From the NCBI GenBank assembly GCA_025964255.1, contig JAOPZF010000212.1, positions 1-43,229 of the forward strand: 43,229 bases of DNA, written 5' to 3'. The DNA is from Solirubrobacterales bacterium (GTDB lineage Bacteria > Actinomycetota > Thermoleophilia > Solirubrobacterales > 70-9). Shown piece after piece: positions 17,447-19,994 of the stretch (position 1 is the first letter of the stretch; each line of letters begins with the position of its first letter). Below the pieces are notes generated by a model, which was given only the letters and a program-made list of their open reading frames with translations, was not told the DNA's origin and made no database searches. The position numbers and the translations under genes are program-made.

Positions 17447-17463
17447 CCCCCAGCACATAAGCG

Positions 17464-17580
17464 CCACATCTAGAGGGGTGGAGGGACTGGCCCAGTGAAG
17501 CCCCGGCAACCATTTCGGACCTAGCGGTCCGAGGCAGGTGCCAACTCCAGCAGATCGAGAAATCGATTTGACAGATGTGG
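17464..17580 (+). ncRNA. S-box (SAM-I) riboswitch aptamer
   Basis: The conserved SAM-I core is present: AGAGGGGTGGAGGGACTGGC and then GAAGCCCCGGCAACC, with the later GGTGCCAACTCCAGCAG. P1 is an 8-bp stem, CCACATCT (17464-17471) with AGATGTGG (17573-17580). P3 is a hairpin CGGACC-TAGC-GGTCCG, and P4 is ATCGA-GAAA-TCGAT. The downstream expression platform fits SAM-triggered transcription termination before the threonine-synthase-type gene at 17665. Confidence 0.93.
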
Positions 17581-17611
17581 GGGATGTCCGATCCGGACCT
17601 CTGCCCCACGT
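17575..17611 (+). promoter_or_regulatory. Antiterminator pairing of the S-box
   Basis: ATGTGGGG (17575-17582) can pair with CCCCACGT (17604-17611) with one G-U. The first segment is part of the 3' strand of P1, and the second covers part of the terminator's left arm and loop. SAM-stabilised P1 and this antiterminator are therefore mutually exclusive. Confidence 0.8.
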
Positions 17612-17627
17612 GGCGGAGGTCTTTTTT
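17596..17627 (+). terminator. Riboswitch-controlled intrinsic terminator
   Basis: GACCTCTGCC (17596-17605) pairs with GGCGGAGGTC (17612-17621) over ten base pairs including one G-U, with a 6-nt loop. Six T residues follow at 17622-17627. It lies 38 nt before the thrC start and completes the off-switch. Confidence 0.92.
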
Positions 17628-17664: not shown

Positions 17665-18897
17665 ATGTCAGTCCAAAGTTTGAAGTGCAAGGAGTGCGCG
17701 AGCGAGTACGAACTCGGCGCCACCTATTTCTGCGAACGGTGCTTCGGCCCGCTCGAGGTGAAGTACGACCACTCGGACCTAGACGCCGAGACGGCGAAAC
17801 GGCGGATTCAGGCCGGTTCGCGGGGGATCTGGCGCTACGCCGACTTCCTCCCGTTCTCGGGCCGCCCGAGCGACCCGCTGGAGCCCGGCCTGACGCCGCT
17901 GCTGAAGGCGGATCGGCTGGCCGACCGGCTCGGGACCGACGCCGAGATCTGGATCAAGAACGACGCCGCCAACCCGACCCACTCGTTCAAGGACCGGGTG
18001 GTCGCGGTGGCGATCGCGAAGGCCCAGGAGCTCGGCTTCGACACCGTCGCCTGCGCCTCGACCGGCAACCTCGCCAACGCGGTCGCCGCTCACGCCGCCG
18101 CCGCGGGCCTTGACTCATACGTCTTCGTGCCCTCCAACCTGGAGGAACAGAAGCTGCTCGCGACCGGCGTCTACGGGACCAACCTGGTCGGCGTCCGCGG
18201 CAACTACGACGACGTCAACCGGCTCTGCACGCAGCTCGCCGAGGAGTACCCGTGGGCGTTCGTCAACGTCAACCTGCGGCCGTATTACGCCGAGGGGTCG
18301 AAGACGCTCGCCTTCGAGACGGTCGAGCAGCTCGGCTGGGCGCTGCCGGACCGGATCGTCAGCCCGATCGCCTCCGGGTCGCTGTTCACCAAACTGGGCC
18401 GTGGCTTCCAGGAATGGATCGACATCGGCCTGGTCGAGGGCGGGCAGCCGAAGTTCAACGGCGCCCAGGCGCAGGGCTGCAGCCCGGTGGCGACGGCGTT
18501 CGCCGAAGGTTGGGACGTCTGCAAGCCGCAAAAGCCCGACACGATCGCCAAAAGCCTCGCGATCGGCGATCCGGCCGACGGGCCCTACGCGGTCGAGCAC
18601 GCCCGCAAGACCGGCGGGGGCATCGACATGGTCACCGACCCGGAGATCCGCGAAGCGATCAAGCTGCTCGCCGAGACGACCGGGATCTTCACCGAGACCG
18701 CGGGCGGCGTGACGATCGGCGTCCTCCGCAAGCTCGCCGAACGGGGCGAGCTGCAGAGCGGCGAAAAAGTCGTCGCCTACATCACCGGCGAGGGGCTGAA
18801 GACCCTCGACGCGACCCGCGATACGTTCTCCATGCACGAGATCGATCCCACCCTCGACAGCTTCGACACCGAGTTCGCCCAGGAGGTTTCCGTCTGA
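17665..18897 (+). CDS. thrC: Threonine synthase-type PLP enzyme
   Basis: The family converts O-phosphohomoserine to threonine with PLP. The ATG at 17665 has AAAGGAAGG upstream, so the longer frame from 17575, which would overlap the terminator, is rejected. Residues 8-26 form a zinc ribbon (CKEC and CERC). Lys109 in NPTHSFKDR is the PLP lysine, followed by ACASTGNLANAVAAHAA and the conserved SGSLFTKLGRGFQEW and FTETAGGVTIGVL segments. The length is 410 residues. It is preceded by an S-box riboswitch and its stop overlaps the start of a MoaD/ThiS-like gene (TGATG). That context hints at a sulfur-transfer reaction on the same substrate, such as homocysteine formation, but the sequence alone supports only the ThrC family. 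Confidence 0.88.
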   Translation: MSVQSLKCKECASEYELGATYFCERCFGPLEVKYDHSDLDAETAKRRIQAGSRGIWRYADFLPFSGRPSDPLEPGLTPLLKADRLADRLGTDAEIWIKNDAANPTHSFKDRVVAVAIAKAQELGFDTVACASTGNLANAVAAHAAAAGLDSYVFVPSNLEEQKLLATGVYGTNLVGVRGNYDDVNRLCTQLAEEYPWAFVNVNLRPYYAEGSKTLAFETVEQLGWALPDRIVSPIASGSLFTKLGRGFQEWIDIGLVEGGQPKFNGAQAQGCSPVATAFAEGWDVCKPQKPDTIAKSLAIGDPADGPYAVEHARKTGGGIDMVTDPEIREAIKLLAETTGIFTETAGGVTIGVLRKLAERGELQSGEKVVAYITGEGLKTLDATRDTFSMHEIDPTLDSFDTEFAQEVSV

Positions 18898-19169
18898 TGA
18901 GCGTCACCGTCAAGATCCCGACCCAGCTGCGCGCCGCCACCGGCGGACAGGCGGAAGTCGAAGTGGATGGGTCCAACGTCGGCGAGGCCCTCGACGCTGT
19001 CTTCGCCGCCTACGGCGACCTGCGCGAGCGGATCACCGAGGACGGCACCCTCCGCCGCTTCGTCAACGTCTACGTCTCCGGCGAGGACATCCGCTTCCAG
19101 CAGGGCCTCGAGACTTCGATCAAGTCAGGCGACGAGGTCACCATTCTTCCCGCAGTAGCCGGAGGCTGA
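18897..19169 (+). CDS. MoaD/ThiS-family sulfur carrier protein
   Basis: This 90-residue beta-grasp protein ends in Gly89-Gly90 (LPAVAGG), the C-terminal diglycine that is adenylated and thiocarboxylated in MoaD, ThiS and CysO. The body matches the family: VTVKIPTQLR at the start, VGEALDAVFAAYGDLRERI in the middle and LETSIKSGDEVTILPAVAGG at the end. AGGAGG lies upstream and the ATG overlaps the thrC stop. No activating E1-like enzyme or metalloprotease of the CysO type is nearby. Its tie to thrC suggests it carries sulfide for that PLP enzyme, by analogy with CysO-CysM. A role in molybdopterin or thiamine synthesis is less likely, because no such genes are nearby. Confidence 0.87.
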   Translation: MSVTVKIPTQLRAATGGQAEVEVDGSNVGEALDAVFAAYGDLRERITEDGTLRRFVNVYVSGEDIRFQQGLETSIKSGDEVTILPAVAGG

Positions 19170-19205: not shown

Positions 19206-19994
19206 GTGAAACCACCGGTGGTGATCCTCTGCGGCGGGCGTGGAACGCGGCTGAGGGAGAAGACGGAGTCCGTGCCGAAGCCGCTGGTCGAGATCGGCGG
19301 GCGGCCGATCCTCTGGCACGTGATCGGGATCTACGCGGCGCAAGGCTTCGATCGCTTCCTCCTCGCGACCGGCTATCTCGGCGACCAGATCGAGCGGTTC
19401 GTCTCCGAGGAGCGCTGGCCGACGCCGGTCTCGGTCGAGTGCGTCGACACCGGGGTCGACACGCCGACCGGCGGCCGGATCGTGGCGCTCGGTGAGCGGC
19501 TCGGCGATGGGACCTTCTGCGCGACCTACGCCGACGGGGTCGCCGACGTCGATCTGGGAGCGCTGATCGACGAGCACCGCGCGGGCGGGGCGCTGGCGAC
19601 CGTGACCGTGGTGCGCCCGCACCTCCAGTGGGGTGTCGCCGAGCTCGACGGCGACGAGGTCACCGGCTTCGTCGAGAAGCCTCGCTCCGAGCACTGGATC
19701 AACGGCGGCTTCTTCTGCTTCGAGCCCGGCGCGCTCGACCACATCGCACCCGACTCGGTGCTCGAGCGCGAGCCGCTCGAAGCGCTTGCCGCCGGCGGCC
19801 GGCTGCGCGCCTACCGTCACGAGGGCTTCTGGGACTGCATGGACACCTACAAGGACGCCGTCCTCCTCGACGACCTCTGGCGCGCCGGTGACGCCCCATG
19901 GCACCCCTGGAATGTTGATGGGCCGAAAAGCACTGATATAGAGCGCTTTTCGGCCCATCAACGACGTGGCTCGGCGGGGGTGGCGCGTGGCTAG
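19206..19994 (+). CDS. rfbF: Glucose-1-phosphate cytidylyltransferase-like enzyme
   Basis: The family makes CDP-glucose from CTP and glucose-1-phosphate. Residues 8-27 give the nucleotide-binding loop GGRGTRLREKTESVPKPLVE, followed by IGGRPILWHVI. TYADGVADVD is the metal-binding segment, WINGGFFCFEP the sugar-binding one, and FWDCMDTYKD the near-terminal signature. In this family the chain usually ends shortly after the GDAPW motif. Here about 28 more residues follow, most of them encoded by a perfect 18-nt inverted repeat at 19914-19962. The GTG start lies 7 nt after a TAAGGA box. The downstream epimerase-like gene overlaps it. Confidence 0.85.
   Translation: MKPPVVILCGGRGTRLREKTESVPKPLVEIGGRPILWHVIGIYAAQGFDRFLLATGYLGDQIERFVSEERWPTPVSVECVDTGVDTPTGGRIVALGERLGDGTFCATYADGVADVDLGALIDEHRAGGALATVTVVRPHLQWGVAELDGDEVTGFVEKPRSEHWINGGFFCFEPGALDHIAPDSVLEREPLEALAAGGRLRAYRHEGFWDCMDTYKDAVLLDDLWRAGDAPWHPWNVDGPKSTDIERFSAHQRRGSAGVARG
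19914..19962. repeat. Perfect 18-nt inverted repeat at the 3' end of the rfbF-like gene
   Basis: GTTGATGGGCCGAAAAGC (19914-19931) is exactly reverse complemented at 19945-19962. The 13-nt loop is ACTGATATAGAGC. No T-tract follows. The element starts where the protein family normally ends and adds a non-conserved tail (VDGPKSTDIERFSAHQ). The loop shares TATAGAGC with the element inside recJ, while the stems are unrelated. Confidence 0.92.

What the first reader, a model, noticed from the sequence alone, without database searches (positions are those of the whole stretch)
17665..19169. ThrC-like enzyme coupled to a diglycine sulfur carrier: candidate homocysteine-forming pair
The thrC stop overlaps the start of a MoaD/ThiS-like protein ending in GG, and both lie under one SAM riboswitch. 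By analogy with CysM-CysO (PLP enzyme plus thiocarboxylated carrier) and carrier-dependent homocysteine synthesis, the pair could move sulfide onto O-phosphohomoserine to give homocysteine, which would explain the SAM control. No activating E1 or trimming protease is in the window.
Basis: inference. Interest (0 to 1): 0.78.

Follow-up and report, generated by a model that had tools for sequence, protein, structure and literature searches.

The report
Carrier-fed homocysteine synthase pair (MetM-MetO)
An actinobacterium appears to make methionine by taking an intermediate of threonine synthesis and adding sulfur from a small carrier protein, a route described in Streptomyces in 2024 that seems to be the only one in this genome.

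Summary
A ThrC-like PLP enzyme (17665-18897) and a 90-aa MoaD/ThiS-type carrier ending in GG (18897-19169) share one base (TGATG). They lie behind the only SAM riboswitch reported in the genome (17463-17581, 83 bits) and a terminator-like hairpin (17595-17622).

I could read only passages of a citing paper.

The genome fits. It has hom and a separate thrC with thrB nearby, another ThrC-like gene and a MetH-like gene, but no PF01053 protein over cut-off, no MetA, no credible MetX and no HcyBio. An E1 beside a second carrier, and a cysteine-synthase-family gene beside a JAMM-like gene, lie on two other contigs. Of 61 genomes (this one and 60 relatives) MetM is in 59, MetO adjoins it in 57 of those, and 38 lack a full PF01053 protein, including 12 of 12 of the genus. 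The riboswitch precedes 29 of 29 relative loci scanned. The enzyme's active-site motifs differ from five solved ThrCs.

Verdict: new member of a known kind, apparently the sole homocysteine route here. Substrate, carrier dependence and release are inferred; nothing was assayed.

The parts
17463..17581 (+). SAM riboswitch aptamer (RF00162, S box)
   Evidence: 83.1 bits, full model 1-108; the only one reported in the genome
17595..17622 (+). Intrinsic-terminator-like hairpin plus T run, presumed expression platform of the riboswitch
   Evidence: its role is inferred from position and fold
17665..18897 (+). metM: ThrC-like PLP enzyme (410 aa) with an N-terminal four-cysteine ribbon; predicted O-phosphohomoserine:carrier homocysteine synthase
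   Evidence: motifs RPYYAEGSKT, ASGS, ETAGGV; tree
18881..18886 (+). AGGAGG, likely ribosome-binding site of metO inside the end of metM
   Evidence: Read directly from the sequence
18897..19169 (+). metO: 90-aa beta-grasp sulfur carrier ending in GG
   Evidence: best solved relatives 4n6e_B and 3dwg_C

Best explanation
This is a MetM-MetO pair. When SAM is low the riboswitch lets transcription through. An E1 of MoeB/MoeZ type with a rhodanese-like domain, encoded on another contig, adenylates and thiocarboxylates the C-terminal glycine of MetO. MetM binds O-phospho-L-homoserine, made by Hom and ThrB for threonine, loses phosphate through PLP chemistry, and takes sulfur from MetO-COSH at the gamma carbon. 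Homocysteine leaves directly or as a MetO-homocysteine adduct cut by a JAMM (Mec-like) protease, and a MetH-like enzyme methylates it to methionine. Threonine itself is made by another ThrC. Shown here: gene order, riboswitch, family signatures, presence of the partner genes, absence of the classical enzymes from this assembly and its genus, conservation in relatives. Inferred: substrate, carrier dependence, charging by this E1, mode of release.
For: SAM riboswitch before the pair and before 29 of 29 relative loci scanned, L093-L121. MetM in 59 of 61 genomes, this one included, MetO next to it in 57 of those 59 (coordinates compared by hand). No PF01053 over cut-off in the genome while 14 of 14 controls have it. 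Full-length PF01053 (E<1e-40) in 23 of 61 and 0 of 12 of the genus. MetX at E<1e-100 in 9 of 61, 0 of 12 of the genus. MetA and HcyBio: no match in this genome. hom, thrC and thrB on C138; S-methyl_trans domain in a 1198-aa frame, MetH-like. E1 with a second carrier on C217; cysteine-synthase-family gene and JAMM-like protein on C270. Same layout in Nonomuraea gerenzanensis and two Kitasatospora of Streptomycetaceae (L074, L090). Published MetM of S. albulus with SAM riboswitch, said to prevent methionine auxotrophy, as described in PMC12172450 (passages).
Against: No assay. The same paper reports that a Microcystis homologue (51.6% to MetM, beside a metO-like gene, no SAM riboswitch) acts as threonine synthase and threonine deaminase, raised no methionine in the cells, and gave only an unidentified peak near methionine with O-phosphohomoserine; homology alone does not settle activity. 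The general thrC model TIGR00260 is passed with room to spare. Some MetM loci have no adjacent metO (7 of 80, one of them cut by the contig end, and 1 of 29). The assembly is 90.9% complete with 6.5% contamination, so the absences lean on the genus; MetA and HcyBio were searched in this genome only. The E1 fails the curated MoeZ model (377.8 bits, cut-off 647) and the JAMM-like protein fails the desampylase cut-off (80.6 against 130). The Hasebe paper itself is not held.
Confidence: 0.88

Rival explanations
1. MetM makes homocysteine from O-phosphohomoserine but with free sulfide as the main donor; MetO is an accessory or serves another sulfur transfer.
For: 7 of 80 MetM loci have no metO-like frame within 500 bases (one, L084, has only 104 bases of contig left), among them three with a SAM riboswitch from actinobacteria (L069, L087, L091; two titled Pseudonocardiales) that form one supported clade; relatives G034 and G043 likewise lack an adjacent metO.
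Against: metO is adjacent in 73 of 80 and 28 of 29 loci; in 67 of the 73 the gap is under 50 bases or negative. Most of the genomes hold a second, CysO-like carrier as well, so MetO is not the general-purpose one.
Confidence: 0.15
2. The enzyme is an ordinary threonine synthase that happens to be under SAM control, to hold the threonine branch in step with methionine; the carrier belongs to another pathway.
For: Passes TIGR00260 thrC; the Microcystis homologue made threonine in vitro.
Against: Separate thrC beside hom with thrB nearby; 0 of 109 MetM loci (103 distinct) match the ThrC substrate-segment pattern that the five solved ThrCs and the local ThrC keep; none of the homocysteine routes searched for was found in the genome.
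Confidence: 0.06
3. Bifunctional branch-point enzyme: makes homocysteine when charged MetO is present and threonine (water as nucleophile) when it is not.
For: The Microcystis paper reports threonine synthase activity in a homologue next to a metO-like gene; the same first half-reaction would serve both products (ThrC chemistry, recalled).
Against: A separate ThrC exists in this genome; the changed active-site segment.
Confidence: 0.2

Closest known systems
MetM-MetO of Streptomyces albulus (Hasebe et al. 2024, Appl Environ Microbiol 90:e01247-24; known here through passages of PMC12172450)
   Same: ThrC-homologous PLP enzyme, neighbouring sulfur carrier gene, SAM riboswitch upstream; Kitasatospora (L074, L090) and Nonomuraea (L009) loci show the same layout.
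   Different: About 54-58% identical to the Kitasatospora and Nonomuraea enzymes; the S. albulus sequence itself was not compared. In this genome no classical enzyme was found beside it, and a second carrier is present.
CysM-CysO-MoeZ-Mec cysteine synthesis of Mycobacterium tuberculosis (PMC3227635, passages)
   Same: PLP enzyme taking a phosphorylated amino acid and a thiocarboxylated GG carrier; among the carrier's closest solved relatives is 3dwg_C, CysO by recall.
   Different: Product is cysteine from O-phosphoserine; this genome has a candidate set for that on C217 and C270, so metMO is a parallel system.
HcyS-dependent methionine synthesis of Wolinella succinogenes (Krishnamoorthy and Begley 2011; reference entry seen in PMC5764234, content recalled)
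   Same: Protein thiocarboxylate as sulfur donor for methionine.
   Different: Uses a MetY-type (PF01053) enzyme and O-acetylhomoserine (recalled); here no PF01053 protein is over cut-off.
Threonine synthase ThrC
   Same: PALP-family PLP enzyme; 278 bits on TIGR00260; ThrC acts on O-phosphohomoserine.
   Different: RPYYAEGSKT where the five solved ThrCs have N-x-x-R-(L/I)-EGQKT, ASGS where the four short ones have GNAG, ETAGGV where three of them have EPASAA.

Membership tests
MetM-MetO | ThrC-homologous PLP enzyme | tested here: met
MetM-MetO | Adjacent sulfur carrier with C-terminal GG | tested here: met
MetM-MetO | SAM riboswitch upstream (reported for S. albulus; said to be missing in Microcystis) | tested here: met
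   report
MetM-MetO | Groups with enzymes of Streptomycetaceae carrying the same operon, apart from ThrC | tested here: inconclusive
   the Nonomuraea/Kitasatospora clade falls in the same 34-row set as the window at support 91/90, below the starred level; L003 and two haloarchaeal ThrCs fall outside (99/98). L002 falls inside on a very long branch whose join the program flags as unsure. The S. albulus sequence was not held
MetM-MetO | Homocysteine from O-phosphohomoserine plus carrier thiocarboxylate | not testable with these tools
   Needs an assay
MetM-MetO | Absence of classical homocysteine genes in the host (recalled from the Streptomyces work) | tested here: met
   assembly 90.9% complete; genus-wide 0 of 12 for full-length PF01053 and for MetX. 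Not a strict feature: 22 of the 59 genomes with MetM also hold a full-length PF01053 protein
Threonine synthase (ThrC) | Passes the curated thrC model | tested here: met
   278 bits against 167.1
Threonine synthase (ThrC) | N-x-x-R-(L/I)-EGQKT segment shared by five solved ThrCs | tested here: not met
   0 of 109 MetM loci by pattern. Two haloarchaeal genes annotated thrC also lack it (NPFQVEGKRT), so it does not define every ThrC
CysM-CysO | O-phosphoserine/O-acetylserine sulfhydrylase sequence family (TIGR01138, NF008735) | tested here: not met
   CysM models reach 41 bits against cut-offs of 394 and 413
HcyS-MetY (Wolinella type) | PF01053 enzyme (recalled) | tested here: not met
   none over cut-off in the genome

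The most novel reading that the evidence does not exclude
In this genus, and probably in much of its order, both sulfur amino acids are built only on protein thiocarboxylates: MetO feeds homocysteine and a separate CysO-like carrier feeds cysteine, both charged by one E1, and the SAM riboswitch on metM is the main methionine control at the threonine/methionine branch. Free-sulfide homocysteine synthesis would then be lost.
Probability: 0.35. Interest if true: 0.55.

Novelty: new member of a known kind. Interest (0 to 1): 0.36.

Why it matters
It gives a methionine route to a clade where annotation by the classical enzymes would show a methionine gap and extra thrC genes. It suggests that genes named thrC that lie behind a SAM riboswitch with a MoaD-like neighbour should be renamed; metM with metO also recurs, mostly without the riboswitch outside actinobacteria, in records titled Nitrospirota, Aquificaceae, Chloroflexi and others. 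Lineages with riboswitch and metM but no adjacent metO make the question of carrier dependence directly testable.

Tried and rejected
Ordinary ThrC under SAM control: set aside because a separate ThrC sits beside hom with thrB nearby and because of the motif differences.

Hidden classical route: PF01053, MetX, MetA and HcyBio were searched. This genome's two PF01053 matches (20.6 and 20.2 bits) and two MetX matches (25.2 and 23.1 bits) are short pieces. In the 61 genomes the tool's own PF01053 tally is 38 over cut-off; 15 of those, among them G004 and G007 of the genus, have only partial stretches of about 27-38 bits, and I counted only E<1e-40 (23 of 61); the best E-values leave a gap from 2.5e-47 to 5.2e-10. 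No control genome passes the MetX cut-off of 500 bits (9 of 14 show some match), so I used the gap between 389 and 37 bits. The MetA search finds 8 of 14 controls, 6 over cut-off; HcyBio 3 of 14.

Naming the second carrier CysO by sequence: not settled. It scores 84.9 bits on 3dwg_C and 80.5 on 4n6e_B, MetO 82.7 and 87.5; the label rests on its E1 neighbour. Promoter scan: none found.

Paper searches for prior art; of what they list only PMC12172450 bears directly on the pair. PMC2948915, PMC12452182 and PMC7311316 were seen in passages and did not help. No structure prediction was run.

The 80 and the 29 loci overlap: six proteins occur in both, leaving 103 distinct of 109. Two of the 27 loci without a riboswitch (L055, L092) have under 100 bases upstream, too little to hold one. 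'Adjacent' means within 500 bases on the same strand. The adjacency count in 61 genomes was read by hand; G033 and G004 match only part of MetM.

Full report
Observation. The window holds, on the + strand, a SAM riboswitch aptamer at 17463-17581, a terminator-like hairpin at 17595-17622, a 410-aa ThrC-like gene at 17665-18897 and a 90-aa MoaD/ThiS-like gene at 18897-19169 ending in GG. Stop and start share one base, and AGGAGG lies ten bases before the second start. Aptamer and hairpin fold together at -79.5 kcal/mol, z -3.1; hairpins of this kind also turn up in shuffles (1.3 on average). No other RF00162 match was reported in the genome (150 of 271 first-look candidates were scored). The first protein passes the curated thrC model, the second the SAMP1 and MoaD-family models.

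Genome. The window is contig C88 of a 4.0-Mb assembly in 277 contigs, 90.9% complete, 6.5% contamination. The closest named relatives of the enzyme are MAGs titled Actinomycetota, Thermoleophilia and Solirubrobacterales, up to 91% identical. Besides MetM there are ThrC-like genes on C138 (41%) and C135 (44%); both pass TIGR00260. C138 reads homoserine dehydrogenase, thrC, an unrelated frame, thrB. C217 carries an E1 (509.9 bits on NF006444 MoeB, cut-off 449; 377.8 on the MoeZ model, cut-off 647) with an N-terminal rhodanese-like part that stays under the rhodanese cut-offs, followed by a second carrier 53% identical to the window's. C270 carries a CysK/CysM-family gene (337.1 bits on TIGR01136, just under its cut-off of 344.15) followed by a JAMM-like protein (80.6 bits on desampylase, cut-off 130; related to solved JAMM1). 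An S-methyl_trans domain in a 1198-aa frame on C72 is MetH-like (that it is MetH is inferred from length). No relative of the E1 or JAMM-like protein was found in the window itself.

Missing classical enzymes. PF01053, the family of MetB, MetC, MetY and MetZ, has no match over cut-off in the genome; 14 of 14 controls do. MetA: none. MetX: only 25-bit and 23-bit pieces. HcyBio/DUF39: none. Because the assembly is incomplete I looked at 61 genomes including this one. Full-length PF01053 (E<1e-40) occurs in 23 of 61 and in 0 of 12 of the genus (the tool's looser tally is 38 of 61, with two genus members over cut-off on partial stretches). MetX (E<1e-100) occurs in 9 of 61 and 0 of 12 of the genus. 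MetM (E<=1e-100) occurs in 59 of 61 and 12 of 12 of the genus. A metO neighbours metM in 57 of those 59; the exceptions are G034 and G043, the latter with MetX and a PF01053 protein. 53 of 61 genomes have two or more carrier matches. The routes are not exclusive: 22 of the 59 MetM genomes also hold a full-length PF01053 protein.

Relatives. In 80 loci from named records (the best 80 of 585), metO is adjacent in 73 and RF00162 lies upstream in 53: 20 of 20, 14 of 20, 9 of 20 and 10 of 20 in the four batches. In 29 loci of unnamed relatives (L093-L121) the figures are 28 of 29 and 29 of 29. Six proteins are shared by the two sets. Of the 27 loci without a riboswitch, 24 form one supported clade of Nitrospirota, Nitrospinota, Aquificota, Elusimicrobiota and one Nitrosospira record (100/99); the others are L082, L088 and L092, and L055 and L092 are cut too close to hold one. 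Seven of 80 lack an adjacent metO: L068, L069, L070, L079, L084 (104 bases of room), L087, L091; of these L068, L069, L087 and L091 have the riboswitch. Of 101 adjacent carriers, 34 do not end at GG in the script's reading, one of them a shifted frame; the window's does.

Enzyme signature. Against five solved ThrCs the window protein has RPYYAEGSKT where they have N-x-x-R-(L/I)-EGQKT, ASGS where the four short ones have GNAG, and ETAGGV where three of them have EPASAA. The local ThrC of C138 keeps the ThrC forms; two haloarchaeal genes annotated thrC have yet another form. Of 109 loci (103 distinct), 103 match the RPYY pattern, 102 ASGS, 107 ETAGG, 106 the cysteine ribbon with CFGPL, and none the ThrC pattern. 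I recall, without a call, that the arginine of the ThrC segment helps bind the substrate phosphate in the Thermus enzyme; how MetM binds it is open.

Tree. In an 86-row tree the window sits among Thermoleophilia rows (26 rows, 100/99). That group joins a Nonomuraea/Kitasatospora-containing group at 91/90, below the starred level. The C138 ThrC and the haloarchaeal ones lie outside (99/98). The C135 gene falls inside on a very long branch that the program flags as unsure.

Literature. PMC12172450 (passages) states that Hasebe et al. 2024 identified MetM as a novel homocysteine synthase in Streptomyces, converting O-phosphohomoserine; that metM of S. albulus has an upstream SAM riboswitch; that homologues occur in cyanobacteria; and that a Microcystis gene similar to metO is annotated as a sulfur carrier. 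Against a simple reading it reports that the Microcystis homologue acts as threonine synthase and deaminase and raised no methionine. The Hasebe paper is not held; that MetO is thiocarboxylated and donates the sulfur is recalled. PMC3227635 (abstract and passages) gives the CysO-CysM-MoeZ-Mec scheme used as analogy.

Conclusion. The window pair is most likely a MetM-MetO operon that replaces the phosphate of O-phosphohomoserine by sulfur from MetO thiocarboxylate, with an E1 as charger and a Mec-like protease possibly releasing the product. Gene content supports the pathway strongly; the chemistry is inferred from the published relative. It is a new member of a known kind; what this case adds is a genus in which it appears to be the only homocysteine route.

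Noticed in passing
L069, L087, L091 (and L068): MetM-type genes behind a SAM riboswitch but with no metO-like frame next to them; three of them form one supported clade beside the Nonomuraea/Kitasatospora group (join 95/72, weak). Their sulfur donor is unknown.
   Followed up: partly
G000 C135:31908-33101 (L002:1450-2757): A second cysteine-ribbon ThrC-like enzyme, 44% to MetM, with SYKDR, RPFYAEGAKT and EPAGGTT motifs, no Rfam match in its locus and no carrier beside it; it passes the thrC model, function unclear.
   Followed up: partly
window 19914-19962: An inverted repeat (21-nt arms, 95%, 7-nt loop) inside the 3' part of the sugar-nucleotidyltransferase frame after metO; among 127 loci its exact 16-base core is in the window's own copies (L001, L007) and one close relative (L093) only.
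   Followed up: partly
L039, L044, L052, L053, L056, L067 and others: About a third of the adjacent carriers carry one to five residues after GG (such as AHG, SHD, SR), which would need trimming before charging.
   Followed up: no
G000 C217 (L008:929-1204): The CysO-like carrier beside the E1 ends GGA, with one residue after GG, unlike MetO; the E1's rhodanese-like part is N-terminal, while MoeZR of mycobacteria is described with a C-terminal one.
   Followed up: no
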